A stretch of 64,000 bases of DNA from IMG/VR virus record IMGVR_UViG_3300025887_000010, positions 62,001 to 126,000 of that record. One strand, written 5' to 3'. The notes below the pieces were generated by a model. The model was not told the DNA's origin and searched no databases. It saw only the letters and a list, made by a program, of their open reading frames with translations. This DNA is from a virus. Below are positions 17,393 through 63,380 of this stretch, piece by piece (positions within the stretch are counted from its first letter, which is position 1; each line of letters opens with the position of its first letter). The translations under genes and the position numbers were made by a program.

Positions 17393-17482
17393 CAGAGGTT
17401 CCCAGTGTTTCGCTGGGAACCTTTGTTGTTCGTGACTGTGTAATATATTTGAGGTTATTCATTGAACTCAGTGAACTCCTGG
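17393..17482 (+). repeat. structured intergenic repeat, copy 1
   Basis: Hairpin arms AGGTTCCCAG (17396-17405) and CTGGGAACCT (17413-17422) with a short T-rich tail, likely terminating the upstream gene. This is followed by TGTAATATATTTGAGG and then AACTCAGTGAACTCC (17465-17479). The same three-part layout occurs at 36035, 54200 and 63292. This copy is the least conserved in the middle block. Confidence 0.7.
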
Positions 17483-17501
17483 TTAACCCGAAGGAAATTC
17501 C

Positions 17502-18023
17502 ATGTCTCATGCCGAAATCAGAGAGCTCGTAAAGCAATCTCAGTCATTCGTCCGCACTAACCAGTTTCGAGTAGAGTTTACGCTGCCATCAGGTCTCAAG
17601 GAATTTGACATTCGGCGATTGTCTCTGAACTGTCACACGGCCAAGATTCCTGGTTACTCGATCGAGAACTACACCCATGCGATTTCGGGTGCTCCTGAGA
17701 CTCAGCATGCTGCAACGACAAAATATGTAGAAGCGAGTTTCGGTTTCTACCAATCGAAAGACTTCCATGAATTCGACGTTTTCGATGAATGGAGAAAGAT
17801 CATTGTCGACACTGAGACTGGAAAGCTTGGCTACTTCAATGACTACACGACCTCAATTTATGTCATCCCCCTTCTTTCGAACGATCGAAGGCTACGAACG
17901 ATCGAGCTTCTCGATTGCAAACCAACGACGATGGGTGAAACTGATCTGAGCTTCAAATCTCAAAACGAGATTGCCGAGCTCACTGTCTCGATGAGCTACA
18001 CTCGTTATAGAACTGTCACTTAA
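17502..18023 (+). CDS. tail tube-fold protein, gp19-like (second copy)
   Basis: 173 residues. SFVRTNQFRVEFTLPSG at the N-terminus and the C-terminal TIELLDCKPTTMGETDLSF then EIAELTVSMSYTRYR match the gp19 layout. T4 gp19 is 163 residues, close to this copy. It could be the major tube protein, a tube terminator-like ring or a baseplate tube initiator; sequence alone does not decide. It starts a new transcript after repeat copy 1 and is followed by the gp26-like gene. Confidence 0.8.
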   Translation: MSHAEIRELVKQSQSFVRTNQFRVEFTLPSGLKEFDIRRLSLNCHTAKIPGYSIENYTHAISGAPETQHAATTKYVEASFGFYQSKDFHEFDVFDEWRKIIVDTETGKLGYFNDYTTSIYVIPLLSNDRRLRTIELLDCKPTTMGETDLSFKSQNEIAELTVSMSYTRYRTVT

Positions 18024-18037
18024 CTGGAGAGAACACA

Positions 18038-18736
18038 ATGGGTCTTCCTAAGATTACACAAACCAAAACGTCTGTCACACTTCCTTCTGGGAAGAAGATT
18101 CGAATTCGACCATTTGTCGGATCCGAAGAAAAGGCACTGCTCATGTCAAAGCAATCGACTCAGAAGGGTGATCGAATCAATGCAGCGATGGATGTGCTTT
18201 CGAGCTGTTCCGACTATGATGTCTCGAAGTTTCCAATGACAGATTTCGAATTCCTCTTCATGAAGGCCTACGAAATCTCTGTCAGTCAGACGATAGACAT
18301 CGGTCTTCGTTGTCGAGCCAAGGATTGCGAAGAAGTCCTTTCCGCTTCCATCCCACTTGATCAGATCGAAGTTCCGAAGCTCGAGAAGAAACGCTGTAAG
18401 ATCGACGTCGGCCTTGATGAAAATGGCGATCCTGTCAAGCTCTTCATTCGAATTCCTACCGTTGGTGAAGCTCTTAAAGTTCAGGATGATGAAAATGCAG
18501 ACGTTCGACTCATCTTCGAGTGCCTTGAGGGTGTGTATGTCAAGGATGAAAAGGCTGAAATCGACGACTTCGCAGAGTTCGAAGATTGGTTCATGAGTCA
18601 ACAGGACCTGTATCGAAAATGCACAGTCTTTCTCAACTCCATTCCTCGGATCGAGTTCGTTCGTGATTGGGAATGTCCTTCATGCAAGCACCAAAATCAC
18701 ACCGTCATGAGGGGATTCGACTCTTTTTTCTCCTAA
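18038..18736 (+). CDS. gp26-like baseplate hub/tail chaperone (T4_baseplate family)
   Basis: 232 residues. The start TKTSVTLPSGKKIRIRPFV then GSEEKALLMSKQS is the hallmark of the gp26/T4_baseplate family, and the C-terminus has the zinc-ribbon-like CPSCKHQNHTV followed by RGFDSFFS. Two further cysteines (CRAKDC) occur at about residue 91. In T4, gp26 is needed for hub assembly and is thought to act as a tape-measure chaperone. The gene ends in a slippery T TTT TTC heptamer three bases before the stop, with the next ORF open in the -1 frame. Confidence 0.85.
   Translation: MGLPKITQTKTSVTLPSGKKIRIRPFVGSEEKALLMSKQSTQKGDRINAAMDVLSSCSDYDVSKFPMTDFEFLFMKAYEISVSQTIDIGLRCRAKDCEEVLSASIPLDQIEVPKLEKKRCKIDVGLDENGDPVKLFIRIPTVGEALKVQDDENADVRLIFECLEGVYVKDEKAEIDDFAEFEDWFMSQQDLYRKCTVFLNSIPRIEFVRDWECPSCKHQNHTVMRGFDSFFS
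18724..18730 (+). promoter_or_regulatory. candidate -1 ribosomal frameshift site
   Basis: T TTT TTC in frame with the gp26-like gene, a canonical X XXY YYZ heptamer, followed by TCC TAA. After a -1 slip the reading continues CTC CTA ATC ATG GCG directly into the next gene, giving a fusion of about 293 residues. This mirrors the G/GT tail-chaperone arrangement of lambda-type phages. Confidence 0.5.
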
Positions 18737-18738
18737 TC

Positions 18739-18918
18739 ATGGCGTATTCTAACATAGGTGTGTTCTACAACACGGTCTCGACCATGAAGATGGCGCAGGC
18801 TGGAACCTGGACGATTGGAGAGATTGAAGCTCTCACACCAATGGAACGATCAATGCACATCGAACTCATGACGACCTATCTAAAAGAGCTTGCTCGACGG
18901 GATAAAATAGTCAAATAG
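18739..18918 (+). CDS. small tail-assembly protein (gp51/T-like position)
   Basis: 59 residues (starts MAYSNIGVFYNTVSTMKM), with WTIGEIEALTPMERSMHIE typical of short chaperone C-terminal pieces. It begins three bases after the gp26-like stop and lacks a clear ribosome-binding site, which fits expression by frameshifting as a gp26 extension. The position corresponds to gp51 in T4-like hub clusters. Independent translation from the ATG is the alternative. Confidence 0.7.
   Translation: MAYSNIGVFYNTVSTMKMAQAGTWTIGEIEALTPMERSMHIELMTTYLKELARRDKIVK
18903..18909 (+). promoter_or_regulatory. possible late promoter TAAAATA
   Basis: TAAAATA in the end of the small gene, 43 bases before the membrane-protein gene at 18952. 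It is preceded by GGA and followed by GTC, as at 58480. Confidence 0.35.
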
Positions 18919-18951
18919 TCATCAAATAGATGAAAATGAGTTGGATACCCC

Positions 18952-19239
18952 ATGACTGACAAAACCTTTGAAGAATTTCTAAAGGCCCGATGGACGTACC
19001 GCCGTCGGGTCATGTTCACGACACTCTGCTTCTACTTCTCTTCGATCGCCTTCATTCTCTACAAGGCCGATCCTGCAGATATCGGACACTACAACGGGAT
19101 GCTGGTTCAGCTGACGATCTCGTTCTCCACAGTTTCAGTTGCCTACTTCGGCGCATCCTCTTACGAGAGAGTGAACCAAGATGTTCAGAAGGACTTGGCG
19201 AATTTCAACGAGACGATGCGAGACAAGCTCGACAAGTAA
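18952..19239 (+). CDS. holin-like two-helix membrane protein
   Basis: 95 residues. The N-terminus is soluble (KTFEEFLKARWTYRRRV), followed by two membrane segments (about residues 22-39 and 50-70: MFTTLCFYFSSIAFILYK and MLVQLTISFSTVSVAYFG), then a charged tail. The RRRV-membrane-membrane layout is shared with small holin-like proteins common in T4-superfamily tail regions. It may pair with the amidase at 10685. Proof of holin activity is absent. Confidence 0.75.
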   Translation: MTDKTFEEFLKARWTYRRRVMFTTLCFYFSSIAFILYKADPADIGHYNGMLVQLTISFSTVSVAYFGASSYERVNQDVQKDLANFNETMRDKLDK

Positions 19240-19248
19240 GGAAAAACG

Positions 19249-21897
19249 ATGATCACAGTCAAACTCAACGCAAGCAAGGACGGTTCACGGATCGTCCTTG
19301 ACAAACCTGTTCGCTTTGAGCCTGGAGTTCGATACGTCATCAATTCAGATTTCGACATCTTCCTGACATGGAAAAATCGCGAAACTCATCTCGATGAGAC
19401 CTTCGAAAGTGGATTGAACTTTCCCGTTCCAAACTTCACCACTCAGGAACACTATGGTCGGTTCAACGACAATCTTCTCTACTGGATTTACAACGATCCA
19501 ATGGCGAATCTGACAGGAATTCCTCTCGGACTGGCAAACAGCATCATACAAGAGACCACACTGGACGAATATTGGGACAGCCCCCTGAGCGAGCTGTACA
19601 ATTCACTGGTCGGAAACCAAGTGATCGCGAATCGCACAATCGCAGAGGTGTTTCAGAACCTCACAGATGACAACAATATCCGAAGCTTCGAACCTGTTCA
19701 ATCTGGTGACAATTCGGGTCGAATCTTCGAAAACAGCATTCCATACTTCGCAGTTGCGACTGCATCAGGTCGTGTCGATCCATCGTCATATCGTCTGTCT
19801 TTCGAAGATGGTGAATTCATGGTCTACCTGGAAACGGCAGTTGCAGACGCTGTCGTCAAGACTGATCTCTACCATTACGCCTCGTCAAACGGTTCTACGT
19901 CTGTTGAGTTTGTAATTCAGCCTGGAGAAACTAGATCGTTCTTTATCAACGATCTGAATCGATCTCTCGATGACTTCGAAATTGAGCCGAAAGAGTCGAG
20001 AGATAATCTCGTCAATGTGAACGGTCGGTTCAGTGAGTACATCCTTGCGACATATCCTCGACTATATGATTTCGTCAACACCTACATCCAATCTCAGAAC
20101 CTTTACGAGACTCCTCAGTCGTACCTCACCAACCTCATCGACGACACGATTCCCGAAAGGATGGGGGATGACCTGAGGCGATCGAAGAACCAGCAGTCTT
20201 TCAGCTTCAAATCCCACATGATCGATGACAACGACCTTCTGTTGAGCACCGCAGATTTCGCGAAGAATAAAGGCACCAAGAAATCGATCGAGTGGCTGGC
20301 GGAAGCTGTGTATGGTAATTCAGTCGAGACCACAAACTACCAGGAACAAATCATGCGACTGAGCGGATCGAAATGGTTTGAGCGCTATTCGATTTACTTT
20401 ACGAGAGACTCACTTCCTTTTGCTATCGACGATCTTCAAGGTCGAAAGATCAGGGGTTCAAACTCGAAATGTGAAGGCATCATCGAGAGTGCGAAAGTCT
20501 CATTCATCTCGAGCTTGAAGGAGATTGTCGAACTCGTAGTTCGAATGGACTTCGGCGAGTTCAATGAAGACGACATCTTTTCGATCTCTTCAAAAGAGGT
20601 CAGTGATGACTCTATGAATCTCGGCATTGTGGACATCGAAGTAGTCAATGGAGGATTTGGCAACAAGGTTGGCGACAAAATCAATCTGAAGTCCTCAACT
20701 GGTTCGAAATTCGAAGGTGTCATCTCAGAAGTCGGAAGCCTAGGACAAGTTGAGTCCGTTCAGATCAACCAGATCGGTTGGAACTTCAGGAGTTTCCAAA
20801 CCCCGTCTGTAGTGCGCAAAGGACTGAATGACTTTGTCCCTGAAGCGAGGTTCATTCAGGTCAGTGAGAAGTCGAACGACTTCTCGTTCAAGATGGAATT
20901 TCGTAATGTCATCTATGAAGCATCGATCGACTTTTTGAGCCAGACACTTTCCGTTCTGGATCGGACATTTTCCCACCCGTCACTCCGATTCCCGTCACAG
21001 GTAATGGGTCTTGCCCTTCTTGATGGCGTTATCTCAGTTGTGTCCTTCGATGAAACCTCAATCTGGATCATTGATGAGATCGGAGGAATCTATAGTACTG
21101 AGGTTCCCTACAACTTCTTGGCAACTTCGAACGGTTTGAATGGTGTCATACTCGACACAGACACAAACACCGTAAGAACATTCGACATCCAGAGACTTAA
21201 GGAATCTGGAGAGCTTTCGATCTTGACAGAATTTGGTGTCGGTGCGAATTCGTACTTCTCGATCTCTGCTTCCGCCCGATCAATCTTCATCACATCCGAC
21301 ATCGTGGACATGTACGAATATGAAGGAAATTCTCAAGATGGTGATTTGAACCCTTTCCGAATTCTCGAAGTTCTGGTTGACGCTGATGATGAAGTCATTA
21401 TCGACGATCTCACTGAAGAAGCTCTCATCATCTTCAGGAACTTTCGATCGAACACCTACATCCCGTTCGTTTTCGAAGATGGAGTTTTCGAAGATGATGT
21501 GTTTGAAGGTGACGAATTCAAGCTCTTTAACATCTCTGTCGTTTCGAAAAACGGAATCGAATTCATCACTGCGGAAAGCTCATTCAACCTTTACTCACTC
21601 CAGATCACCCTGTCGAACGAAGTCGTTCCAAAAATCAAAGTGAAGACTGGTCGTATTATCAAGAAACAAGGTTCATACATCAACAGTGATGGACATCTCA
21701 GCTCGAATCAGAAGATGATCGGAACAACGTATCAGCCGTTCTCAGTTGGGTTCGAAACGGAAACTCTCTCTCGGAACATGAAGGAATTGCTTGAAGGTGA
21801 TGCTCTCATGCCAGGAATGATATATAAAGGTCTTGTCCCTGTTGTCGCTGAGAGTGAATCTGTTCTCCTCATTGGCACTGCGGAAGTCCTGGAATAA
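19249..21897 (+). CDS. large baseplate/tail structural protein (gp7-like position)
   Basis: 882 residues. The middle contains a segment typical of phage baseplate-associated proteins: YPRLYDFVNTYIQSQNLY, IDDTIPERMGDDLRR, LLLSTADFAKNKGTKKSIE and WLAEAVYGNSVETTNY (about residues 265-370), after which it becomes beta-rich with a GxGF/GSGY-like module (about 465-520). It lies between the hub chaperone and a fibre/gp8 cluster, so a wedge or fibre-attachment role like gp7 is plausible, but no direct gp7 motif was recognised. ATG preceded by AAGGAAAAACG. Confidence 0.7.
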   Translation: MITVKLNASKDGSRIVLDKPVRFEPGVRYVINSDFDIFLTWKNRETHLDETFESGLNFPVPNFTTQEHYGRFNDNLLYWIYNDPMANLTGIPLGLANSIIQETTLDEYWDSPLSELYNSLVGNQVIANRTIAEVFQNLTDDNNIRSFEPVQSGDNSGRIFENSIPYFAVATASGRVDPSSYRLSFEDGEFMVYLETAVADAVVKTDLYHYASSNGSTSVEFVIQPGETRSFFINDLNRSLDDFEIEPKESRDNLVNVNGRFSEYILATYPRLYDFVNTYIQSQNLYETPQSYLTNLIDDTIPERMGDDLRRSKNQQSFSFKSHMIDDNDLLLSTADFAKNKGTKKSIEWLAEAVYGNSVETTNYQEQIMRLSGSKWFERYSIYFTRDSLPFAIDDLQGRKIRGSNSKCEGIIESAKVSFISSLKEIVELVVRMDFGEFNEDDIFSISSKEVSDDSMNLGIVDIEVVNGGFGNKVGDKINLKSSTGSKFEGVISEVGSLGQVESVQINQIGWNFRSFQTPSVVRKGLNDFVPEARFIQVSEKSNDFSFKMEFRNVIYEASIDFLSQTLSVLDRTFSHPSLRFPSQVMGLALLDGVISVVSFDETSIWIIDEIGGIYSTEVPYNFLATSNGLNGVILDTDTNTVRTFDIQRLKESGELSILTEFGVGANSYFSISASARSIFITSDIVDMYEYEGNSQDGDLNPFRILEVLVDADDEVIIDDLTEEALIIFRNFRSNTYIPFVFEDGVFEDDVFEGDEFKLFNISVVSKNGIEFITAESSFNLYSLQITLSNEVVPKIKVKTGRIIKKQGSYINSDGHLSSNQKMIGTTYQPFSVGFETETLSRNMKELLEGDALMPGMIYKGLVPVVAESESVLLIGTAEVLE

Positions 21898-21924
21898 AAT
21901 AAACCACTGCTCGATGATAAAATA
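21895..21924 (+). promoter_or_regulatory. possible late promoters, two TAAAATA motifs
   Basis: TAAAATA occurs at 21895-21901 and again at 21918-21924, 22-45 bases before the fibre gene at 21946. The second has the context ATGATAAAATAATATG. Confidence 0.4.
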
Positions 21925-21945
21925 ATATGAAATGGAGACTTAAGA

Positions 21946-22920
21946 ATGGCTGATAGAGTCCTAAACAGCTTTCCGATTAATGCGAAGTTCGGAAACCAAT
22001 ATCTTGCTGATGGTGAAGCACTCACTATTCGCTCAGAAGTGGCACGAGATGCATCTCTGTTGTCTGAAAATAACTCAGCATCGAGTGAGGCTGCTGCGAA
22101 CACTTCTGCAATTACTGCTTCAGATTCTGCTTTAAGTGCATCCGCATCCGCCACAATCGCTACGGCTGCAGCAACTGATTTAGAAACTACTCTTGGACTT
22201 GCTATAGTCTATAAAAATGATGCACAAACATCGTCTGTCTCAGCTTCTGCTGCTAGCGCTTCGGCTTCTGCTTCTTCTTCTTCCTCGTCAGCATCAGCTT
22301 CAGCAGCTCTCGCGAGTGAGAATTCTGCGGAGAAATGGGCTGTAGAGGCAGAGGATGTTGAAGTTTCCACAGGCGAATTTTCCGCAAAGCATTGGGCCGC
22401 AAAGGCTTCAACTTTCAACCCTGAATTGATTATAGCCTCCTCAAATAACTACCGCACAGGGCTTATACGTCAGTCAGGGTTCTACGCCAGCCAATCACAA
22501 AACAGTGGTACTGCGACGTCAACACTCCCGCCCGCAGTGACGCTCCCCGCAGGGGACTATCTGCTCGATTACAGCTTCGAGGCCAAGCCTTACGACGCGG
22601 GAACAAGTGGTGCTGTTATCGTAGTGCAAGTGGAGATGTACGCGTACATACCGGGTCCTGGCGTCGGGACAGTGCACCCTCTTGCGGACGTCGACTTCTA
22701 TGGCAACCACTCGATACGGCCGTACCTGGTTATACGTGACGCAAGTGATCTGGACTACGTTGTACGCGACAGTGGGCAGCGAACATTCACCTTAGCAGCA
22801 GAGACACTTGTTAGCTTCAAGATACAAACGCAAGTATTTAACTCAACCGACCAGGCGCAGTCTGTGGCCATCACGATGATACGAGCAGCTCGCATAACTC
22901 GGATACAAGAACTGACATAG
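21946..22920 (+). CDS. tail fibre protein with variable C-terminus
   Basis: 324 residues. The N-terminus (FPINAKFGNQYLADGEALT) probably attaches to the baseplate. Residues about 40-125 are an Ala/Ser-rich helical or trimeric coiled-coil shaft (ASASASSSSSSASASAAL). Next comes AEKWAVEAEDVEVS, then FSAKHWAAKA, the motif seen next to fibre shafts in T7-like fibres. The last about 155 residues form a beta-rich tip. From about 22435 the DNA becomes GC-richer and uses codons rare in the rest (ATA, CGG, GGG, CCC), pointing to an acquired receptor-binding domain. Confidence 0.85.
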   Translation: MADRVLNSFPINAKFGNQYLADGEALTIRSEVARDASLLSENNSASSEAAANTSAITASDSALSASASATIATAAATDLETTLGLAIVYKNDAQTSSVSASAASASASASSSSSSASASAALASENSAEKWAVEAEDVEVSTGEFSAKHWAAKASTFNPELIIASSNNYRTGLIRQSGFYASQSQNSGTATSTLPPAVTLPAGDYLLDYSFEAKPYDAGTSGAVIVVQVEMYAYIPGPGVGTVHPLADVDFYGNHSIRPYLVIRDASDLDYVVRDSGQRTFTLAAETLVSFKIQTQVFNSTDQAQSVAITMIRAARITRIQELT

Positions 22921-22990
22921 TAAGAATAACGTGACAGTTTACATGAGAGACATGCAATATTCCATAATGACAAAAAGGTAAGCGAATCAA

Positions 22991-35575: not shown

Positions 35576-36019
35576 ATGGTCAAGAGAGAAACATTTACAG
35601 TCGATGAACTCGTTAATGAAGTTAGTCTCTTTGCAAAAACCCCATACGGTGTCAAGCGTGAATGGGAAGCACGTCTTTCTATCTACTCCAAAGAATCAAT
35701 GAAGGAAATTATCGGGAATACCAAAACTCGCCCAGGTGCAATCAACAAATTCAAGATTCATTTCAAGACAACACCTGCACCTCTTCTCGATATCAAAATG
35801 ACCGAAAATGAAATCGACATTCTGATGTCCCTTTCATGCAAGGACGATCCATCGAGTCTTGATTTTCTTGCAGAAAACACCAATCGCTCTATCGCAAGTG
35901 TTCGTGGAATTGTCCGCTCCATGCTGAAGAAAGGACTCGTAGCTGAAGATGATGAATCTGCTCTCATCTGGTTGACTGTGATCGGTATGGCTGAACAAAA
36001 TCGCAAAAGTGATTATTAG
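35576..36019 (+). CDS. possible winged-helix DNA-binding protein
   Basis: 147 residues. The C-terminal half (TENEIDILMSLSCKDDPS, DFLAENTNRSIASVRGIV and RSMLKKGLVAEDDESALIW) reads like a helix-turn-helix with a wing, as in phage transcription regulators. It is alone between a terminator plus promoter and repeat copy 2. If it is a regulator it is a natural candidate for acting on the phage promoters; this is inference. Confidence 0.75.
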   Translation: MVKRETFTVDELVNEVSLFAKTPYGVKREWEARLSIYSKESMKEIIGNTKTRPGAINKFKIHFKTTPAPLLDIKMTENEIDILMSLSCKDDPSSLDFLAENTNRSIASVRGIVRSMLKKGLVAEDDESALIWLTVIGMAEQNRKSDY

Positions 36020-36034
36020 ATGCCAGTCACTATT

Positions 36035-36122
36035 CAGAGGAACTCAGGGATTCACTGGGTTCCTCCCTGCCGTTTGATGTATATTATATTGTCAATTTCT
36101 GAATAGACTCAGTGAGCTTCAG
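36035..36122 (+). repeat. structured intergenic repeat, copy 2
   Basis: Hairpin arms AGGAACTCAG (36038-36047) and CTGGGTTCCT (36055-36064). The conserved AT-rich block is at 36074-36093 (TTGATGTATATTATATTG). The 3' block GACTCAGTGAGCTTC is at 36106-36120. The 3' block can also pair with the TTCACTGGG of the hairpin 3' arm. It follows the gene at 35576 and precedes a promoter. Confidence 0.75.
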
Positions 36123-36150
36123 GTTTATTGAGTGAATCAGTCACTTTAGT

Positions 36151-36180
36151 ATGTACATGTCTAGTGGAATGTGATATCAT
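36151..36180 (+). promoter_or_regulatory. phage early/middle-type promoter
   Basis: ATGTAC, 13 bases, TGTGATATCAT, followed by ACTATAAAC. A short palindrome AGTGA-ATCAG-TCACT (36131-36145) lies just upstream. Confidence 0.7.
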
Positions 36181-54120: not shown

Positions 54121-54122
54121 TT

Positions 54123-54152
54123 GTGTACAAATAGTTCGTAGTGTGTTAGAAT
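54123..54152 (+). promoter_or_regulatory. phage promoter with no ORF behind it
   Basis: GTGTAC, 13 bases, TGTGTTAGAAT. Transcription would start at about 54160 and run directly into repeat copy 3; the next gene has its own promoter at 54315. Confidence 0.75.
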
Positions 54153-54159: not shown

Positions 54160-54235
54160 TCTGAACATTACGAGACAAAACTGACACACAGATGCTTATC
54201 AGGAGTACTCAGTGATTCGCTGGGTACTCCGTTCG
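54160..54235 (+). ncRNA. candidate small RNA ending in the repeat hairpin
   Basis: About 75 bases between the orphan promoter and the hairpin GGAGTACTCAG/CTGGGTACTCC (54202-54230). It contains ATTACGAGACAAAACTGAC (54167-54185), which recurs almost unchanged next to repeat copy 4 (63259-63277). No ORF of any size fits. Transcript ends are inferred. Confidence 0.5.
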
Positions 54236-54287
54236 TATTTGATGAATGATATATTGTCAATCTGCTCAAGAGACTCAGCGAGCTTCA
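54200..54287 (+). repeat. structured intergenic repeat, copy 3
   Basis: Hairpin at 54202-54230 (11-base arms with one G-U pair), AT-rich block TTGATGAATGATATATTG (54239-54256) and 3' block GACTCAGCGAGCTTC (54272-54286). Relative to copy 2 the hairpin loop side changed CACTG to CGCTG and the distal block CAGTG to CAGCG, i.e. both partners changed together. Confidence 0.8.
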
Positions 54288-54314
54288 TTTAATTTGTGTT
54301 TCTGCAAATGAGTT

Positions 54315-54344
54315 GTGTACATTTATCAACCTTTATGATATTCT
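54315..54344 (+). promoter_or_regulatory. phage early/middle-type promoter
   Basis: GTGTAC, 13 bases, TATGATATTCT, then ATAATTACAGAAAC before the gene at 54384. Confidence 0.8.
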
Positions 54345-54383: not shown

Positions 54384-54623
54384 ATGTCAAGAGAGTCACT
54401 CTACAGTTCAAATGTCAAACGTCGCGAACGTCCTACTGAAGGAAAAGTTATGCGGGGAGTTGGTAACATGATCCAACGCCACAATGAAAATGATGCTGAA
54501 GAGCGTAAAGCTGCTGAAAAAGCCCGTATGGAAAAGGCCAAAGCAAAGGTTGAAGCACGCCGCAAAGCTGGAAGCTCTCTTGCACACCTCAACAAGTTGC
54601 GTTATGGAGAGGACCTCGGCTAA
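54384..54623 (+). CDS. hypothetical highly charged helical protein
   Basis: 79 residues (starts MSRESLYSSNVKRRERPTE); residues 35-62 are Ala/Glu/Lys-rich (ERKAAEKARMEKAKAKVEA), a long single helix. AAAGGAATTCGA leader. The peptide RPTEGKVM near the N-terminus also occurs, as RPTEGKLM, at the start of the DUF262 protein. Function unknown. Confidence 0.7.
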   Translation: MSRESLYSSNVKRRERPTEGKVMRGVGNMIQRHNENDAEERKAAEKARMEKAKAKVEARRKAGSSLAHLNKLRYGEDLG

Positions 54624-55545: not shown

Positions 55546-55636
55546 AGCAGGATAGAAGAGAATTCAATCTCTTCGATTTCGCACCTGATGGAATTTCCCT
55601 TTAGGTTAACCTCAACTCATCGAAAGTGAGAAACAA

Positions 55637-56455: not shown

Positions 56456-56482
56456 GTCGATCTGAACATCACAAATCAATCA

Positions 56483-56510
56483 TGGCAGCAAGTCTTTCGA
56501 TTTGTTGCCA
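56483..56510. terminator. bidirectional hairpin between convergent genes
   Basis: TGGCAGCAA (56483-56491) and TTGTTGCCA (56502-56510), nine pairs with one G-U, between the rightward outer-membrane gene and the leftward fibre cassette. Confidence 0.6.
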
Positions 56511-56516
56511 TTGTTG

Positions 56517-56666
56517 TCAAAAGCGATATCCGAATTTGTCGATTTCCCACGAAAAATGCTTCCTTACGTGGTTAGCCAGCTTATGGTCTAAGTATTCTCT
56601 GTAGTGCTTGTCGACCTTTGATTGGCATTGAGGTGCGGCAACTCTCCCATCTTGAAAATTTGCCAT
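56517..56666 (-). CDS. small protein behind the tail fibre, possible chaperone
   Basis: 49 residues from the ATG at 56666 (starts MANFQDGRVAAPQCQSKVD; then DKHYREYLDHKLANHVRKH). Coding-like composition, 30 bases after the fibre stop. The ribosome-binding site AAAGGA touches the ATG, which is unusually close. Small genes in this position often encode fibre assembly factors; that is only positional inference. Confidence 0.5.
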   Translation of the reverse strand: MANFQDGRVAAPQCQSKVDKHYREYLDHKLANHVRKHFSWEIDKFGYRF

Positions 56667-56696
56667 TCCTTTTGCAGGATTTCGCCGCCATTATGG

Positions 56697-58157
56697 CTAC
56701 AAGATCACACCAAAATTGAAAACGAGAAACCGGCGCTGCGCGAGCGTGCCGACCGGCTGGACATAGACGACCAGTGCGCCGGGGCGATCCGATGTGTAAT
56801 TGATGGTCTCATCAAACGTTTGCCATGCGAATTTAGAGACTGGAAAATTGGTCAACTGCGCCAGTAGCACGCGGTTTTCGACACCCGTGCCACTACCCCA
56901 ATCACCGCCGGGTTCGGCGCGCAGTAAATAGAGCCGCAGATTGACAGCCGTCAACTCATTGTCCGACGGGGTGATCCGACCAAAAAAGGATTTTATCTGC
57001 GACCCGGCCCGCACATATGGCCCGCTCTGCGCCCAGTCATAGGTTGGGTCGACGCCCGTCCCGGCATCGTCCAACTGGTTCGTCGTCGAAATGCCTAAAT
57101 CCTTGTTGAATGTCACCCAGCGGTTGTTTGTCTCCATATAAAACCGCCCGCTGACCTCGACCAAAACGCCATCGTTTTCGGCTGCTAGACTCAGAAGCCA
57201 TGCAGCTTCAGTTCCGACGAATCCATTCGTGACAGCAACATCGTATGCGGAAGGACCGTCAGACCCGTTGAGACCATCAGCACCAGGGAGACCGTCAGCA
57301 CCAGTTGCACCAGGAGCACCATCAGCACCTTCGAGACTCAGCAACCACTCAGCTTCAGTTCCGGCGAATCCACCATTGACTGCGATCTGATATGCAGACA
57401 AACCGTCAGCGCCAGTTGCACCATCGAGACCATCTGCACCAGGAGCACCGTCAGCACCTTCGAGACTCAGAAGCCATGCAGCTTCAGTTCCTACGAAACC
57501 CCCATTGACCGCTACTTGATAAGCAGACAAACCGTCAGAACCGTTGACACCATCAGCACCTTCGAGACTCAGCAACCATGCAGCTTCAGTTCCGACGAAA
57601 CCACTATTGACTGCGATCTGATATGCGGAAGGACCATCAATGCCGTCAGCACCAGGAGCACCAGCTGCTCCATCGAGACCGTCAGCACCAGGAGCACCGT
57701 CAGTGCCTTTGAGACTCAGCAACCATGCAGCTTCAGTTCCGACGAATCCATTCGTGACAGCAACATCGTATGCGGAAGGACCGTCAGCACCAGGGAGACC
57801 GTCAGCGCCAGGAGTGCCAGTTGCACCATCGGCTCCTCGAATACTGAAGAGCCATGCGGCTTCAGTTCCGACGAATCCATTCGCGACAGCAACATCATAG
57901 GCTGATAGCCCATCGGCACCGTCGGCACCATTGAGACCGTCGGCACCATCAGCGCCAGGTAAACCGTCAGCGCCATCGGCACCATCAGCACCAGCGAGAC
58001 TGGCGACCCATTCGGCTTGTGTTCCGACGAACCCTTCATCAACTGCTGATTCGTACGCGGTCAAGCCACCCTGCATGTTTACGATACTTGCGTTTGCGAC
58101 TCGCACCCTTGCTGGGGCTGAAGTCGTGATTTTGAGTGTAGTTGTGTTAGTCGGCAT
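56697..58157 (-). CDS. collagen-like repeat tail fibre/adhesin
   Basis: 486 residues from the ATG at 58157 (GGAGATCACCATCT leader). After a short N-terminal beta domain come seven copies of a 24-residue unit of the form SAYDVAVTNGFVGTEAAWL plus LSLxG, separated by Gly-Ala-Asp collagen-like triplets (GADGADGLPGADG). This builds a trimeric shaft. The C-terminal about 160 residues (56697-57180) are a beta-rich tip with markedly GC-richer DNA than the rest of the phage, likely acquired. Second receptor-binding protein candidate after 21946. Confidence 0.88.
   Translation of the reverse strand: MPTNTTTLKITTSAPARVRVANASIVNMQGGLTAYESAVDEGFVGTQAEWVASLAGADGADGADGLPGADGADGLNGADGADGLSAYDVAVANGFVGTEAAWLFSIRGADGATGTPGADGLPGADGPSAYDVAVTNGFVGTEAAWLLSLKGTDGAPGADGLDGAAGAPGADGIDGPSAYQIAVNSGFVGTEAAWLLSLEGADGVNGSDGLSAYQVAVNGGFVGTEAAWLLSLEGADGAPGADGLDGATGADGLSAYQIAVNGGFAGTEAEWLLSLEGADGAPGATGADGLPGADGLNGSDGPSAYDVAVTNGFVGTEAAWLLSLAAENDGVLVEVSGRFYMETNNRWVTFNKDLGISTTNQLDDAGTGVDPTYDWAQSGPYVRAGSQIKSFFGRITPSDNELTAVNLRLYLLRAEPGGDWGSGTGVENRVLLAQLTNFPVSKFAWQTFDETINYTSDRPGALVVYVQPVGTLAQRRFLVFNFGVIL
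57190..58085 (-). repeat. seven-unit fibre shaft repeat
   Basis: DNA counterpart of the SAY...GFVGTEAAWL units; adjacent copies are close enough for homologous recombination (for example around 57235, 57480, 57590, 57735 and 57860), allowing shaft length change. Confidence 0.85.
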
Positions 58158-58446
58158 AGATGGTGATCTCCACAATTTCCGCAAAGTTGCTGTCGTTTAT
58201 GGCTTGAATCCTCATTTGATAAGTTCCTTTCGGCAAAAAAGGTGCAGTCTTCCCATCGATCATCACCTGAACGATCCCGTTCGTTCCAACAAACAGTGTG
58301 GCTCGATCCGCGATTTCAGTTGATGTAAGGCTACCGACACCAATAAGAGATGCAGATGAGATGACCATTAATGTGTCGTCTGGTGTCATGAACTCCAAGG
58401 CAACGATGTGGTCCCCACCTGACTTCATGTTGATGCGTGATGACAT
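58147..58446 (-). CDS. small protein before the tail fibre
   Basis: 99 residues from the ATG at 58446 (AGGAGCAACC leader). Beta-rich (IVALEFMTPDDTLMVISSA; FVGTNGIVQVMIDGKTAPF), like small fibre-adaptor or head-decoration proteins. Its stop overlaps the fibre start. A TAAAATA motif lies upstream. Function unproven. Confidence 0.7.
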   Translation of the reverse strand: MSSRINMKSGGDHIVALEFMTPDDTLMVISSASLIGVGSLTSTEIADRATLFVGTNGIVQVMIDGKTAPFLPKGTYQMRIQAINDSNFAEIVEITIYAD

Positions 58447-58479
58447 GGTTGCTCCTGAGTTCGTTTGAATTAATTCGAC

Positions 58480-58486
58480 TATTTTA
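58480..58486 (-). promoter_or_regulatory. possible late promoter TAAAATA (leftward)
   Basis: Leftward GTGTAAAATAGTCG, 34 bases before the small gene that leads the fibre cassette. Divergent partner of the motif at 58572. Confidence 0.4.
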
Positions 58487-58571
58487 CACCCCCCCATCAT
58501 ATTCTTTTCAACAGATCGAAAGACTCAAACGATATTCCCATGAATCGCATTCATTCCCGTCAGCAATCGAG

Positions 58572-58578
58572 TAAAATA
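58572..58578 (+). promoter_or_regulatory. possible late promoter TAAAATA
   Basis: CGAGTAAAATATGAATG, 11 bases before the terminase start. Confidence 0.4.
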
Positions 58579-58588
58579 TGAATGAATA

Positions 58589-60307
58589 ATGCCTACCGAA
58601 AAGGACAGTCCTTTGCTTGAGCAATACACCAACCCACGCTGGCTTGAATCAGCACGAGGCATCGACGTGGAGCCGCGATTCGACCTCAAAATTCCGAGTA
58701 TCATCGATCCAAACGAGTACGGTCGTCGCGCCTTCTACATGAACAACAGAAAGATTCGTCGAGCCTACTTTCCGATCATGTACACTCAGGAGATGCTCGA
58801 CGAGATTCAGCGTTGTCGTGAGGACGTCATCTACTTCGCTGCTCGATACTTCTACATTCGAACGCTTGACTACGGTCGCATCATCATTGATCTGTACGAC
58901 TATCAGAAAGAGTTCCTTCGCTGTATGGAGTTGCCTGGAGTTCGGAACGCCATCTATTTGGCTGGTCGTCAGACAGCGAAGTCGACAATCATGACACTCC
59001 GCATTCTACACAAAATCCTCTTCAATGAAGACTATCAGATCGCCATCCTCGCGAACAAGGGTGGCACAGCCCGTGAAATCTTCTCTCGTGTCCGTCTTGC
59101 CTACGAGGAGCTCCCATTGTGGATGCAGCCTGGTGTCATCGACTGGAACAAAGGCTCAACCACTCTAGAGAATGGTTCGAAAGCGTTCGCTGCATCCACA
59201 GCTGATGACTCTGTACGTGGCTTCACACTGAACGAAGTGCTGCTCGACGAATTCGCGTTTGTGAAGAACGACGTAGACTTCTACAAGTCGACCCTTCCTG
59301 TGATCTCATCAGGTACTGATTCGCGACTCACCATGACCTCAACGCCTGACGGCAAGAAGGGCATCTTCTACAAAACATGGGAGAAGGCCATCGGAGGCAA
59401 CAGCAACTTCTTCAGCTTTGGCGTACCCTGGAACCTCGTTCCTGGTCGTGACGAAGAGTGGAAGATCGCAACGATCGAAGACTCATCACTCCTCGAGTTC
59501 CGCATCGAGCACAACATTGAGTTCCTCTCAGGCAAGACCAACCTGATCGACACAGAGGTGCTCGAAGACATAGAGCTCCACACTCTTCAAAACCCTGAAG
59601 ACGAATTCGAAGGTGTCCGCATCTACGAGAACCCTGAAGAGGGGCAATCGTATGTAACCATCGTCGACACAGCTGAGGGCAAAGGACAGGACTATTCGAC
59701 CTTCTCCGTCATCAACGTGACCGAACAGCCGTATCGACAGGTTGCTGCATACCAGAACAACGACATCTCACCACTCCTCTTCGCAGCATTCGTCGACACA
59801 TGGGCAAAGCACTACAACGAATCCCAACTGGTCGTAGAGAACAACAACGCTTCGGGCTCACTCGTCGCTGTGTCTCTTCGCAACGACTATGACTACGACA
59901 ACCTCTATTGCATGAACGCCAAGGATGAGATGGGGATCGGCATCCGCACCACAACCAAAGTCAAGTCGATCGGGTGCTCCACACTACGGGGTCTCCTACG
60001 TTCGAAGAAGCTGACAGTGCGGGACCGTGAGACATACAACGAACTCTGCACCTTTGAATCGAAAGGCACCTCATACGAAGCCTCCAAGGGATGCACAGAC
60101 GATCTCGTACAGAACCTCTGGCTCTTTGCCTGGTACACGACACAGGTCGAATTCGAAGAGCACCTCGAAGGTGAGTCCATTGCTGACGACATCTTTGGTG
60201 CTGAGATCGAAGCCATACAGGGGATCGCACTTCCTGGTGGCTCCAACGAGGGCCCAACACAAAGCAACCACCAGAGCGGCTACGGTTCTGTAAACGACAT
60301 CTGGTAA
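58589..60307 (+). CDS. 17: terminase large subunit gp17-like
   Basis: 572 residues (T4 gp17 610). Motor and nuclease of DNA packaging. ATPase: YDYQKEFLRCMELPGVRNA (adenine motif), Walker A AGRQTAKST (about 126; the P-loop lacks the usual second Gly, as in T4 SRQLGKTT), Walker B EVLLDEFAF (about 217), coupling TSTPDGKKG. Nuclease: IVDTAEGKGQDYSTF (about 357), VVENNNASG (about 412) and DDLVQNLWLFAW (about 512), giving the three acidic sites. No clear ribosome-binding site at the ATG; TAAAATA lies just upstream. Confidence 0.95.
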   Translation: MPTEKDSPLLEQYTNPRWLESARGIDVEPRFDLKIPSIIDPNEYGRRAFYMNNRKIRRAYFPIMYTQEMLDEIQRCREDVIYFAARYFYIRTLDYGRIIIDLYDYQKEFLRCMELPGVRNAIYLAGRQTAKSTIMTLRILHKILFNEDYQIAILANKGGTAREIFSRVRLAYEELPLWMQPGVIDWNKGSTTLENGSKAFAASTADDSVRGFTLNEVLLDEFAFVKNDVDFYKSTLPVISSGTDSRLTMTSTPDGKKGIFYKTWEKAIGGNSNFFSFGVPWNLVPGRDEEWKIATIEDSSLLEFRIEHNIEFLSGKTNLIDTEVLEDIELHTLQNPEDEFEGVRIYENPEEGQSYVTIVDTAEGKGQDYSTFSVINVTEQPYRQVAAYQNNDISPLLFAAFVDTWAKHYNESQLVVENNNASGSLVAVSLRNDYDYDNLYCMNAKDEMGIGIRTTTKVKSIGCSTLRGLLRSKKLTVRDRETYNELCTFESKGTSYEASKGCTDDLVQNLWLFAWYTTQVEFEEHLEGESIADDIFGAEIEAIQGIALPGGSNEGPTQSNHQSGYGSVNDIW

Positions 60308-60326
60308 TAGATAGGACACCGACATC

Positions 60327-62765
60327 ATGACCTTCACCAACTTCATCCGAACCACTGTACAAAAGCAGACTTCTTCTCTCTCCTCTATAGTAAAGGAGTA
60401 CGATAGCTTCTCCAACAACGTCACCTCGTTCCTTTCTACTAGGCTACGTTCACCTCAACCTCCAACCAACCTCGTCTTCAAATCAGGTCGAGTCTCTTTC
60501 TCTGAATATGAGAAGAGCATGCAGCCTTCTATCTCCAACCTCTCTAGTGATGGACCTTCATCCACAGGCATCACCAGCTATCTACCGAGTAGCCAGGATG
60601 TACTCAGCGTACTCAGTGCATCCCAGGAGCAAGAATTCACGTCCCTCCGAGTGCAGATTCAACAACTTCTCCTTAGTACAAGGGATTTGTTCGAATCCTC
60701 TGCATCTGTTCCCATTCTCTTGTCCCAGAATCATAGTGGAGAAAAGGGTACCAGCGCGATTTTAACAGCGTTCGAGAACTGGGACACTCGTAAGGATGCA
60801 GACGTCTCTATACGAGATCAGCTGCTGACCATCGCTACTACACTGCTATCTACGCGATCCTCACTCACTCAGTTGCGTCTACGGTTCTCTCTGCCATCTC
60901 CTGTGGTCACCTTCGAACTGCGACTCACCCAGATCATTCAGAGGTTCGAACGGTTGCTTGAACAGTACTCAGAACCGTTCGAACAGATGACAGAGAGTGC
61001 ACTCGAAATCGAGCAGTCTATCGACGTACCCCATAGAGTCTCACTGAATAGGACTGTTGGGATCGCATCTACCCTACGCAACAGGTTCTTTCGGTTCGTT
61101 CGTGCTGAATACGTGCGAGGTCAGCTGTCATCGATACCTGCCCAGTCGTCATCATTCGCAGGGAATGCAAGAGACCCTGGTTCTGAGAAGGACGTCATCA
61201 CAGGTATCGCAAGTCCCAATGCCCGTATGGCAGTATCAAGAGTTGGTGTGCTTGACGATGATGCTGTATCCTTCGGACCTCTGACTGAAGATGAGTTCGT
61301 TCAGTTTGCAAACAACATCGTATCGTATCTCGGAACCTCTGCCTCTACAGTGAATGCGACAGGCTTTCTCGGATCCTATCAGTTTGGTGCGAATGAACTG
61401 ATTCGACTTGGGTATGTGAAGCCTGGTACAACGAACCTATCACTCAAGGTACCATCGATGTGGACAGGCAAAGATGGCATCAGTTCGAGAGACTCATTCC
61501 TTTCAGCTGATCAGAGACCCATCTTTCTGACTGAATGCAAGTACCTCTACTCACGACTCATTTCGATGGGTGTGCTTGAGTCTACAGACATGAAGGCTAA
61601 GGTCAAAGGATACGTAGCGATCGCATCTATACAGACACTGAGTGCTGCGAATCAGCAGACTCAAGGCATTTCGTTCCAAACAGCTGGGGGTCGTACGAAT
61701 TCAGCAATCTTCAGTCAGTTTGCTGATGGACCTATAGAGACGATGAATCGTGAAGAGTCTGAAGCAAATCAGGTTGCCGCATCAGCAAACTACATGCCTG
61801 ACTCAATGCCATTTAGCATGCCTTCATCGACAGCAGCACCGGTCTATCCGCACAATCATGTCGATCATTCGGAGTCTGGGCATTACAGGGAAGTTGACGA
61901 TACTCCTGGTTCTGAACGCATTGCTGAAAGACATCGTACAGGGACTGGATATGAGATCGATGAGAATGGGACCCAACGCAATGTGATTCGAAAGGATCGG
62001 TACACACTGATCTGTGGTGATGACTTTGTGATGGTGAATGGAAACGTCAACATCTTCGTGGAAGGTGATGCAGGAATCGTAGCCAACAACGTAACGATCA
62101 ATACGAAAGAGGACCTCAACATCACATGCGGTTCGTCTCTCAACATCAAGGCTGCAGACATGAACATTGAGATCGAAGGTCAGAAGGTTGAAACGATTGG
62201 TGCTGACTCTGCATTGAGTGTTGGTGGTTTCATGACTGCAGCAATCGAAGGCAATCTTCAATTCGACTCTAAGGCATTCGCTGCAGTTGCGCGATCAGGC
62301 ACTCTCAATCTTGAGGCTTCTGAGTCCATTGGTCTGAGGTCAGATGATGCAATCAATGCAGTCGCAACCTCAGACATCTCAATCTTCAGTGCAGCATCCA
62401 CAACAGTGGGTTCGAGTGGTAACGTTTCGATTGCTGGTGGCGGTAATGTTGGAATCAGTGGATCAGGGTCAGCAACTCTCTTTGGTTCGAGTGGAACATT
62501 CGTCTCATCTGATGGGAATGTTTCGATTGCAGGTTCAGGACCCATTCGACTCTCACATCCTGTTGAAAAGGCTCTGTATGCTGATACAGCAGGTCTTGCT
62601 ACTCTTGGAACCCCAGTGCCAATCAGTCCATCAGGTTCATCGAGTGATGGTGGAATCAGTGCAACTCTTCAGACTACAGACGAATCGACTCAAAACCTTG
62701 GAGAGCTCGTCTCACTCTATACACTGTCATCATTCGATTCGAGTGAAGCGTCCTCAAAGGGATGA
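60327..62765 (+). CDS. gp5-like baseplate central spike with lytic domain
   Basis: 812 residues. N-terminal half is long helical sequence. Residues about 340-440 (NATGFLGSYQFGANELIRL and MWTGKDGISSRDSFLSADQ) form a muramidase-like domain of the kind found in spike proteins of large myoviruses. PHNHVDH at about 507. From about 555 to 750 are short-repeat strands (VMVNGNVNIFVEGDAGIVA; SIAGGGNVGISGSGSATLF) that form the triangular beta-helix of the cell-puncturing needle. It combines gp5-type functions in one chain and stands right behind the terminase. Confidence 0.82.
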   Translation: MTFTNFIRTTVQKQTSSLSSIVKEYDSFSNNVTSFLSTRLRSPQPPTNLVFKSGRVSFSEYEKSMQPSISNLSSDGPSSTGITSYLPSSQDVLSVLSASQEQEFTSLRVQIQQLLLSTRDLFESSASVPILLSQNHSGEKGTSAILTAFENWDTRKDADVSIRDQLLTIATTLLSTRSSLTQLRLRFSLPSPVVTFELRLTQIIQRFERLLEQYSEPFEQMTESALEIEQSIDVPHRVSLNRTVGIASTLRNRFFRFVRAEYVRGQLSSIPAQSSSFAGNARDPGSEKDVITGIASPNARMAVSRVGVLDDDAVSFGPLTEDEFVQFANNIVSYLGTSASTVNATGFLGSYQFGANELIRLGYVKPGTTNLSLKVPSMWTGKDGISSRDSFLSADQRPIFLTECKYLYSRLISMGVLESTDMKAKVKGYVAIASIQTLSAANQQTQGISFQTAGGRTNSAIFSQFADGPIETMNREESEANQVAASANYMPDSMPFSMPSSTAAPVYPHNHVDHSESGHYREVDDTPGSERIAERHRTGTGYEIDENGTQRNVIRKDRYTLICGDDFVMVNGNVNIFVEGDAGIVANNVTINTKEDLNITCGSSLNIKAADMNIEIEGQKVETIGADSALSVGGFMTAAIEGNLQFDSKAFAAVARSGTLNLEASESIGLRSDDAINAVATSDISIFSAASTTVGSSGNVSIAGGGNVGISGSGSATLFGSSGTFVSSDGNVSIAGSGPIRLSHPVEKALYADTAGLATLGTPVPISPSGSSSDGGISATLQTTDESTQNLGELVSLYTLSSFDSSEASSKG

Positions 62766-62776
62766 ACACACAACAA

Positions 62777-62805
62777 TCCCTCACATTCGTGTTGAGTGTG
62801 AGGGA
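62777..62805. terminator. bidirectional hairpin between convergent genes
   Basis: TCCCTCACA (62777-62785) and TGTGAGGGA (62797-62805), nine perfect pairs, between the spike gene and the leftward accessory block. Confidence 0.65.
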
Positions 62806-62823
62806 GAATCGAATTGGTTTGGC

Positions 62824-63117
62824 TTAAGACATGAACTCATCGAAGTACGATTGATTGAATGCAACCAATTCTTCGATCGAATCGTAACGATTGAATTTGC
62901 CTTCCTTGACGTAGGTCGTTGGGTAGAATTCAGAATCAACTTCATCTGTGTTGCAATCTTGAACATCGACGAATTGACCTTGGTCCTTGACGATTGCACA
63001 TTGTAGGAAACCATCATATGTGAATGAGAAACCGTATTCGGTCTCCTTTACGTTTTCGGACATTCCTTTGAATGCTGAGTTCGATTCGAAGAGTGCTTCC
63101 AGTTGCTTGACAGTCAT
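62824..63117 (-). CDS. hypothetical protein
   Basis: 97 residues from the ATG at 63117 (AAAGGAGACTCAATC leader); the upstream open frame is the promoter region. Starts MTVKQLEALFESNSAFKGM. Contains GFSFTYDGFLQCAIVKDQG and an acidic C-terminus, possibly a small alpha/beta protein. Single gene behind the promoter at 63145-63174. Confidence 0.75.
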   Translation of the reverse strand: MTVKQLEALFESNSAFKGMSENVKETEYGFSFTYDGFLQCAIVKDQGQFVDVQDCNTDEVDSEFYPTTYVKEGKFNRYDSIEELVAFNQSYFDEFMS

Positions 63118-63144
63118 GATTGAGTCTCCTTTGTTTATAGTTCG

Positions 63145-63174
63145 ATTATAGACTATCGGAGACGCAATGTACAC
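63145..63174 (-). promoter_or_regulatory. phage early/middle-type promoter (leftward)
   Basis: Leftward GTGTAC, 13 bases, TAGTCTATAAT; the CGAACTATAAACAAAGGAG leader is the same as behind the 39651 promoter. Confidence 0.8.
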
Positions 63175-63182
63175 AGCTCGTT

Positions 63183-63224
63183 TTGCATCGCATACACAAC
63201 CGATTGCATCGCATACACAACCGA
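63183..63224. repeat. two tandem 21-base direct repeats
   Basis: TTGCATCGCATACACAACCG plus A, twice in tandem, immediately upstream of the leftward promoter. Read leftward each contains GGTTGTGTATGCG, which resembles the -35 region of the phage promoters. May be activator or decoy sites. Confidence 0.75.
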
Positions 63225-63258
63225 CTGACGATCCGTCCATTCATTTCTTGTTCCGTAA

Positions 63259-63380
63259 ATTACGAGACAATACTGACTTCCGATCAATCTTCAGGAGTAA
63301 CCAGTGACTCACTGAGTAACGTATGCCAGGTTGATGAATAATATATTGTCGAAGCAGGTGGTGTGACCCAGAGAGCTTCG
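63259..63380 (+). repeat. structured intergenic repeat, copy 4 (degenerate stem)
   Basis: Shares with copy 3 the ATTACGAGACAAtACTGAC block (63259-63277), CAGGAGTA start (63292), the AT-rich block TTGATGAATAATATATTG (63331-63348) and GACCCAGAGAGCTTC (63365-63379). The outer hairpin stem is not complementary here (only CAGTG/CACTG remains). It lies on the strand opposite to the local genes. Confidence 0.7.

What the first reader, a model, noticed from the sequence alone, without database searches (positions are those of the whole stretch)
17393..63380. Four-copy structured repeat with compensating stem changes
Copies at 17393, 36035, 54200 and 63292 share a three-part design of about 88 bases: a hairpin with CAG-tga/tTTCrC-CTG core, an AT-rich block TTGATGAATRATATATTG, and a distal CTCAGYGAGCTTC. 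The outer stems differ (GGTTCC/GGAACC; GGAAC/GTTCC; GGAGTAC/GTACTCC) yet pair in three copies, which indicates selected structure. The distal block also complements the hairpin 3' arm, and CACTG/CAGTG in copy 2 becomes CGCTG/CAGCG in copy 3. Two mutually exclusive folds, as in attenuators, are possible; so is a protein-binding DNA element.
Basis: partly seen in the sequence, partly recalled or inferred. Interest (0 to 1): 0.8.

Follow-up and report, generated by a model that had tools for sequence, protein, structure and literature searches.

The report
Repeated hairpin element of T4-like phages
The four repeats belong to a family of short hairpin-forming elements that a group of T4-like viruses of bacteria carries at about 7 to 11 places, mostly between genes, and whose job is not yet known.

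Summary
The window lies in a ~123.4 kb T4-like phage with seven copies, three of them outside the window. A model built from six copies finds the seventh (c5) at E 1e-4. Distant relatives, Rhizobium/Sinorhizobium/Agrobacterium phages of Pootjesviridae, carry 7-11 related copies per genome (8 genomes); a model built only from theirs finds c3, c5 and c4 in this phage (E 6e-5.003.004; not c1, c2, c6, c7), and nothing in phages T4 and phiM12. Shared core: a hairpin of about 6 bp with a 10-nt AT-rich loop. It covaries over 29 copies (0 of 500 shuffles by score) and keeps G-U but hardly any A-C pairs (14:1), so it seems to act as a strand-specific hairpin, most likely RNA. In this phage most copies adjoin early-promoter motifs; in six Pootjesviridae one copy follows a ProQ/FinO-like gene. 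Copies are spaced more evenly than a uniform null. No Rfam family. I favour an RNA-level processing or protein-binding hairpin (0.42); a DNA-level dispersed site is the main rival.

The parts
17383..17494 (+). copy c1: hairpin H1 (about 17395-17422), diverged AT block (17442-17461), distal block; between tail genes
   Evidence: downstream gene 17502-18023 matches tail tube PHROGs
36025..36135 (+). copy c2: H1, AT block/H2 (36074-36093), distal block (36106-36120)
36152..36180 (+). early-promoter-like P2 behind c2 (TGTACA-17-TATCAT)
   Evidence: seen by eye in the sequence printed; two bases off the scanned TTGTGTAC
54121..54152 (+). early-promoter motif P1 in front of c3 (TTGTGTACA...TAGAAT)
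   Evidence: sequence motif, activity not tested
54190..54301 (+). copy c3: H1, AT block/H2 (54239-54258), distal block (54272-54286); found by the model made from other phages
   Evidence: E 6.3e-5
54313..54344 (+). early-promoter motif P2 behind c3 (TTGTGTACA...TATTCT), in front of the ORF starting at 54384
63282..63394 (+). copy c4: H1 with broken outer stem, AT block/H2 (63331-63350), distal block (63365-63379); same place relative to terminase and baseplate hub genes as a copy in phage P10VF; overlaps an ORF 63284-63571 on the other strand, if that is a gene
   Evidence: (E .004)

Best explanation
The repeats are copies of an old, apparently phage-specific family of hairpin elements that lie mostly between genes. 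Shown: the element is multi-copy, it is shared with Pootjesviridae, its core is a hairpin of about 6 bp with a 10-nt AT-rich loop that keeps pairing while its sequence changes, and the pairing follows the rules of one strand (G-U kept, A-C rare). Inferred: the core works as an RNA hairpin in phage transcripts, read by an RNA-binding protein or a nuclease, and sets the processing or stability of the RNA on either side. In this phage the element would lie in the 5' leader made from early promoter P1 (c3, c6, c7) or behind the gene before it (c1, c2, c5), and in five copies just ahead of the next early promoter P2. The outer parts (H1, distal block, the palindromic arms of the relatives) would be variable scaffolding. 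In six Pootjesviridae a phage ProQ/FinO-like protein is a candidate reader, but it cannot be the only one, because this phage and Atu_ph04 have no detectable ProQ.
For: H2 over 29 copies: 36 cells changed on both sides against 22.4 in shuffles and covariation score .339 against .222, each 0 of 500; the score is highest at slide 0 (next .192); cells paired 2 of 500. Inner six pairs of 30 non-redundant Pootjesviridae-type copies: 14 G-U, 1 A-C, against 11 and 14 in the four flanking pairs; the loop strand folds better in 22 of 30. In this phage the six copies that run with the gene before them all fold better on that strand (z -1.0 to -2.7 against shuffles; c4 -0.1). P1 in c3, c6, c7 and P2 in c3, c5, c7 are in the motif list; P2 of c2 and c6 was seen by eye in its printed sequences. 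An R2 match (E 1e-6 to .023) behind the ProQ domain on the same strand in 6 of 7 ProQ-bearing genomes, at one orthologous locus. Reciprocal model hits.
Against: Two other measures do not exceed shuffles (pairs with a change on both sides 437 of 500; further pair types 123 of 500). In P10VF and N34 the loop strand is antisense to the flanking genes in 5 of 7 and 3 of 8 copies checked, and Pootjesviridae copies show no promoter-like signal above the other strand (23 copies). The gene-sense strand is the more stable one in only 3 of 12 Pootjesviridae copies (one label corrected). Even spacing is not predicted. The copies counted were picked by a model that includes the pairing, which favours G-U a little, and include its training set. 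c4 has no clear P1 or P2 and lies antisense to its neighbours. Copies are related by descent and not independent. No transcript data exist here.
Confidence: 0.42

Rival explanations
1. A DNA-level site: a dispersed binding site (AT-rich quasi-palindromic core with flanking boxes at fixed distance) for a phage protein that acts along the genome, for example in replication initiation or genome organisation. Orientation would not matter.
For: Orientation relative to genes is mixed. A flanking box ACACAGrnGrnGGGYRG is present on the 5' side, the 3' side (inverted) or both, starting about 34 bp from the core (read by eye). Spacing is more even than uniform in 9 of 9 genomes by CV (P .001-.042).
Against: The G-U over A-C asymmetry of the core stem points to one strand. 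The genomes share positions by descent, so the nine spacing tests are not independent, and the null ignores where intergenic gaps are and treats linear records as circles. phiM9 has two copies 2 kb apart (P of smallest gap .35). The AT-rich stretch is only about 20 bp.
Confidence: 0.28
2. A PeSL-like cassette (early promoter plus stem-loop) as described for T4-type coliphages, serving as operon boundary and recombination patch.
For: In this phage a P2-like motif lies just behind the element in 5 of 7 copies and P1 in front in 3 of 7. Multi-copy and mostly intergenic.
Against: No U-run behind the hairpins, whereas terminator-like hairpins with U-runs are seen by eye elsewhere in this genome. 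In the one 36-kb stretch of N34 examined, only 1 of 4 copies has an early-promoter-like match close behind. At least one copy keeps its place between phages (c4 and P10VF 70945).
Confidence: 0.12
3. One reading: the H1 3' arm pairs either with the H1 5' arm or with the distal block, and the choice controls read-through.
For: Complementarity in 44 of 48 cells of six copies, with one column in four pair types.
Against: Covariation does not exceed shuffles (185 of 500). In many Pootjesviridae copies the 3' part is the inverted copy of the 5' part, not a second copy of it. No terminator-like U-run; leader peptides and ligand domains were not looked for beyond Rfam.
Confidence: 0.07
4. A REP/RIME/MITE-like palindromic repeat derived from hosts or from a mobile element.
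For: Palindromic in part of the copies, mostly intergenic, multi-copy, either orientation.
Against: A scan of GTDB genomes for one exact core pattern gave 2 hits, in Sulfuricurvum and Fictibacillus, about what I roughly estimate for chance, none in Rhizobiales. Same place kept in distant phages (c4). Transposase partners, empty sites and target duplications were not searched for.
Confidence: 0.08

Closest known systems
PeSL elements (promoter-early stem-loop) of T4-type phages, Arbiol et al. 2010
   Same: Short multi-copy phage elements with a stem-loop, next to early promoters in this phage.
   Different: No terminator-like U-run; a conserved hairpin core; no regular early promoter beside the copies examined in N34; at least one copy stays in place between phages. 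What PeSLs are is recalled: only the reference was seen; the paper is not held.
REP and other palindromic repeats (REP-RAYT, RIME)
   Same: Partly palindromic, mostly intergenic, both orientations.
   Different: Not found in GTDB beyond chance with one exact pattern, 7-11 copies, core stem under one-strand pairing rules. REPs are 20-40 bp (abstract start of PMC3733652 in the listing). RIME is recalled only.
RNA targets of ProQ/FinO proteins
   Same: Stem-loop behind the proQ gene on its strand in six phages.
   Different: Known ligands mostly bind through terminator structures, with exceptions among phage-encoded sRNAs (passages of PMC9977716); these elements have no U-run, and two element-bearing genomes lack a detectable ProQ.

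Membership tests
PeSL | early (sigma-70-like) promoter as part of the cassette | tested here: inconclusive
   P2-like motif in 5 of 7 and P1 in 3 of 7 copies of this phage; in a 36-kb stretch of N34 1 of 4 copies has an early-promoter-like match close behind. Feature recalled
PeSL | stem-loop is a transcription terminator | tested here: not met
   no U-run longer than 3 directly behind H1 or the distal block in the sequences (by eye); longest T-run behind 23 Pootjesviridae copies 1-4 nt on either strand. Termination itself not measured
PeSL | recombination between copies shuffles genes | not tested
   no close strains compared
REP-like repeat | present in bacterial genomes | tested here: not met
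   one exact core pattern in GTDB: 2 hits, neither in Rhizobiales; variants would be missed
REP-like repeat | RAYT transposase partner | not tested
   no search made
Any Rfam family | covariance-model match above gathering score | tested here: not met
   window: 0 at gathering; five own-genome loci, 2 sub-threshold matches, best E .89 (the second, E 1.4, is a miRNA model on c5); ten relatives' loci, 1 sub-threshold match, E .73, a miRNA model on the N34 32264 hairpin
Transcription attenuator | two alternative helices | tested here: inconclusive
   both helices can form in most copies; neither is backed by covariation beyond shuffles
Transcription attenuator | one helix is a terminator | tested here: not met
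   neither helix is followed by a U-run
ProQ/FinO ligand | bound by the protein | not testable with these tools
   only proximity: 6 of 7 ProQ-bearing genomes
The element family defined here (this phage plus Pootjesviridae) | reciprocal model detection and shared H2 core | tested here: met
   R2 finds c3, c5, c4 but not c1, c2, c6, c7; R1 finds P10VF .063, N34 .074 and Atu_ph04 .69, weak; 29 cores align without gaps and covary

The most novel reading that the evidence does not exclude
These are genome-wide marks of a T4-like phage lineage: seven to eleven evenly spaced sites, each a strand-specific hairpin read by a phage protein, that start replication (several origins per genome, as in T4; recalled) or order the genome. 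The hairpin would form in an origin transcript or on single-stranded DNA, which would explain both the one-strand pairing rules and the indifference to gene direction.
Probability: 0.15. Interest if true: 0.85.

Novelty: new variant of a known kind. Interest (0 to 1): 0.6.

Why it matters
Short dispersed elements with a covarying core, shared by phages whose terminases are only about half identical, would give a handle on how large T4-like phages of Rhizobiales process early RNA or mark their genomes, and a specific test of what phage-encoded ProQ/FinO proteins bind. The family is absent from the Rfam copy used here.

Tried and rejected
Other pattern scans of viral contigs gave, besides pieces of this same phage, hits that I judge to be chance. 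The search for related loci with terminase, sheath and capsid gave this phage and distant relatives only. blastn of c3 against phage records gave 3 records, best E 2.

Ideas dropped: AT block as a late promoter (late genes here carry an AAAATA-like motif instead; by eye); CcrM GANTC regulation (752 sites in the genome, more than the 476 expected from base composition); classical terminator (no U-run); own small-RNA gene in Pootjesviridae (no promoter bias); c6 being syntenic with the phosphatase-side copies of P10VF and N34 (the two phosphoesterases are barely alike, E .005 over 50 residues); ProQ as the only partner (not found in this phage or in Atu_ph04 by Pfam or by a three-row profile; a weak, below-cut-off match in Cr30).

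Results against my reading and rows dropped: mid and outer arms are not supported over all 22 copies (47.0% and 57.5% of cells paired, no better than shuffles). A4 leaves out c5 (6 of 7 copies). A7 leaves out c1. Of the 28 rows one is the other strand of a listed place and four (N34 17422, 90571, 101099; phiM9 139779) were set aside by eye; R2 later scored two of these as likely real (N34 101066, 1.3e-5; phiM9 139776.006). Of the 23 left, A5 holds 22 and A7 all 23. One search covered 35 of the 40 stretches (five are P10VF itself). In one search I labelled P10VF 70979 as sense; one search shows it antisense to its flanking small genes, so 9, not 10, of 18 copies fold better on the gene-sense strand. 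My notes carry the same slip. One search counted one place (L252) on both strands. One search used the wrong strand for three copies and was redone.
Full report
What was checked. The window is bases 62001-126000 of a 126,862-base virus record, a T4-like phage by its DNA polymerase, terminase, sheath and baseplate hub. The start of the record is found again at 123403 (127 bases match exactly, then differences appear), and copy 4 is present at both 1929 and 125331, so the unit genome is about 123.4 kb. The best-ranked records in the phage collection are Pootjesviridae, with 35.0% identity for the polymerase and 48.9-52.7% for the terminase in the rows listed (taxonomy).

Number of copies. A pattern of the AT block gives six exact rows and one with one mismatch, c4 being counted twice, plus one row at 3 mismatches that the model did not list; the reversed control gives none. 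Adding c1, there are seven places: c1-c4 in the window on the + strand, and c5 (23838-), c6 (44908-), c7 (11599-). A covariance model R1 built from c1, c2, c3, c4, c6 and c7 finds these and the untrained c5 (E 1e-4). Of the 16 matches at E 10 or better, eight are the seven places (c4 twice), seven are on the opposite strand overlapping them, and one is elsewhere at E 1.09.

Surroundings in this phage. An early-promoter-like motif, TTGTGTACA - about 14 bases - TGTGATATnnT, often followed by CTATAAACAAAGGA before a start codon, recurs through the genome (read by eye in the lists). Such a motif (P1) starts 117-126 bases before the AT block in c3, c6 and c7, and another (P2) starts 65-93 bases behind the start of the AT block in c2, c3, c5, c6 and c7; in c2 and c6 P2 departs by two bases from the scanned word and was seen by eye. 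c1 lies between tail genes with neither; its downstream gene matches tail tube families. c4 has no clear promoter on its own strand; a promoter motif on the other strand reads into it. c5 lies in a convergent gap behind a dihydrofolate reductase gene. Terminator-like hairpins with U-runs are seen elsewhere in this genome (by eye), but none follows the elements.

The first hairpin and the switch. On the MAFFT alignment A4 (6 copies) the first hairpin forms in 65 of 78 cells; four of 13 pairs change on both sides, yet 105 of 500 shuffles do as well, and RNAalifold gives a slightly unfavourable covariation term (+0.61). The distal block pairs with the 3' arm in 44 of 48 cells, against 15 and 21 when slid by one column, but because the distal block repeats the 5' arm this does not separate a switch from a repeated binding motif; its covariation is within shuffles (185 of 500).

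Relatives. R1 gave weak hits in P10VF (E .063), RHph_N34 (.074) and Atu_ph04 (.69) among 30 records, 6 of which had any match at E 10 or better. Aligned, these three showed the AT block as a hairpin with a similar loop. A pattern of their version, GATTRATWATCYATWATC with up to 3 mismatches, is multi-copy in all four Pootjesviridae tested (6, 4, 11 and 7 rows; reversed control 0 in each). Their copies span about 86 bp, with a flanking box ACACAGrnGrnGGGYRG before the core, its inverted form after it, or both (boxes read by eye). A model R2 made only from 22 of these copies finds c3 (6.3e-5), c5 (.003) and c4 (.004, both places) in this phage, its only other row there being at E 1.5; c1, c2, c6 and c7 are not found. 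It finds none in phiM12 and T4, and in Cr30 three rows, best .14. At E .01 or better it lists 10 places in P10VF, 10 in N34, 11 in Y68, 10 in AF3, 10 in RL2RES, 9 in RL38J1, 9 in phiM9 and 7 in Atu_ph04 (tallied; P10VF, N34, phiM9 and Atu_ph04 supplied the training copies of R2, the other four did not). It also finds copies at E below 1e-5 in 6 of 35 IMG/VR stretches that carry the exact core pattern.

The core. The 29 cores (6 from this phage, 23 from Pootjesviridae) align without gaps. The core stem shows 36 cells changed on both sides against 22.4 +/- 3.8 in shuffles (0 of 500) and a covariation score reached by 0 of 500, highest at slide 0; the number of pairs with a change on both sides (437 of 500) and of further pair types (123 of 500) is not above shuffles. 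Part of the signal comes from the deep split between this phage and the others, which shuffles do not keep; within the 22 Pootjesviridae copies alone the score is still reached by only 6 of 500 shuffles. In the inner six pairs of 30 non-redundant copies there are 14 G-U and 1 A-C, while in the next four pairs there are 11 and 14. A double-stranded palindrome should give the two in about equal numbers, so the hairpin seems to be used on one strand. The outer arms do not covary over the whole set, though single copies form long hairpins (z from +0.6 to -8.8 over 27 rows, mean -3.0).

Place and direction. The copies checked in P10VF (7) and N34 (8) lie between genes or overlap gene ends, or a short doubtful ORF, by up to about 50 bp. 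The loop strand is antisense to the flanking genes in 5 of 7 P10VF copies (1 sense, 1 in a divergent gap) and in 3 of 8 N34 copies (3 sense, 2 between opposed genes). c4 and P10VF 70945 share the order terminase, baseplate hub, small ORF on the other strand, element, small ORF on the other strand, with the same element direction; phiM9 37612 (.005) and N34 53834 (.09) lie close by, directly behind the hub gene and in the opposite direction. Spacing is more even than uniform by CV in 9 of 9 genomes (P .0011 to .042), and the smallest gap is larger than expected in 8 of 9 (P .002 to .036; phiM9 .35). Related genomes share positions, so these are not nine independent tests.

Partners. A ProQ/FinO-domain gene is found over the cut-off in 7 of the 8 Pootjesviridae (not Atu_ph04), and not in this phage, phiM12 or T4; Cr30 has a weak match below the cut-off. 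A three-row profile also found none in this phage or Atu_ph04. In 6 of those 7 an R2 match lies behind it on the same strand: touching the gene end in P10VF and N34, and 74-117 bases behind the domain match in RL2RES, RL38J1, AF3 and Y68, whose gene ends I did not read. E-values are 1e-6 to .023. This looks like one orthologous locus, near a uvsY gene in the two genomes whose annotation I read, so it counts as one association.

What it most likely is. A family of hairpin elements, not found outside phages by the one scan made, whose core acts on one strand. RNA is the simplest medium. The step from hairpin to function (processing, protein binding, stability) is inference, and mixed direction and even spacing keep a DNA-level role alive. 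Print: searches listed no paper whose title or abstract start describes such an element. I saw passages of the Atu_ph04 paper PMC6630229 (a word search found no 'repeat', 'intergenic' or 'palindrom'), of the ProQ review PMC9977716 and of PMC4177764; the library holds open-licence papers only, and the phiM9 genome paper was not among the listings.

Noticed in passing
G000 1-3460 and 123403-126862 (window 61403-64000): The record's start is found again at its end; only the first 127 bases match exactly and then differences appear, which suggests a circular or permuted genome of about 123.4 kb assembled over strain variation.
   Followed up: partly
whole phage genome, e.g. window 54121-54152, 54313-54344: An early-promoter-like motif TTGTGTACA-N14-TGTGATATnnT with a downstream CTATAAACAAAGGA recurs in many places.
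   Followed up: partly
L002 about 1395-1427, minus strand (G000 23764-): An early-promoter motif behind c5 points antisense into two small ORFs (L002 1133-1399 and 795-1136) that look like a spanin pair by eye; neither matches a PHROG.
   Followed up: partly
upstream of late genes, e.g. window 13630-13696: Late genes seem to carry an AAAATA-containing motif rather than the T4 TATAAATA box.
   Followed up: no
MN988534 23896-24459, KM199770 40299-40952, L258 1309-1848: Pootjesviridae encode ProQ/FinO-domain proteins (7 of 8 genomes tested).
   Followed up: partly
window 35576-36019: The gene just before c2 is a weak MarR/TrmB-like protein (below Pfam cut-offs); it could be a regulator.
   Followed up: no
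KM199770 48590 and MN988534 32264: At what looks like the same place beside a trypsin-like gene, the core is in opposite directions relative to the genes in the two phages, as if the palindrome's centre had inverted.
   Followed up: no
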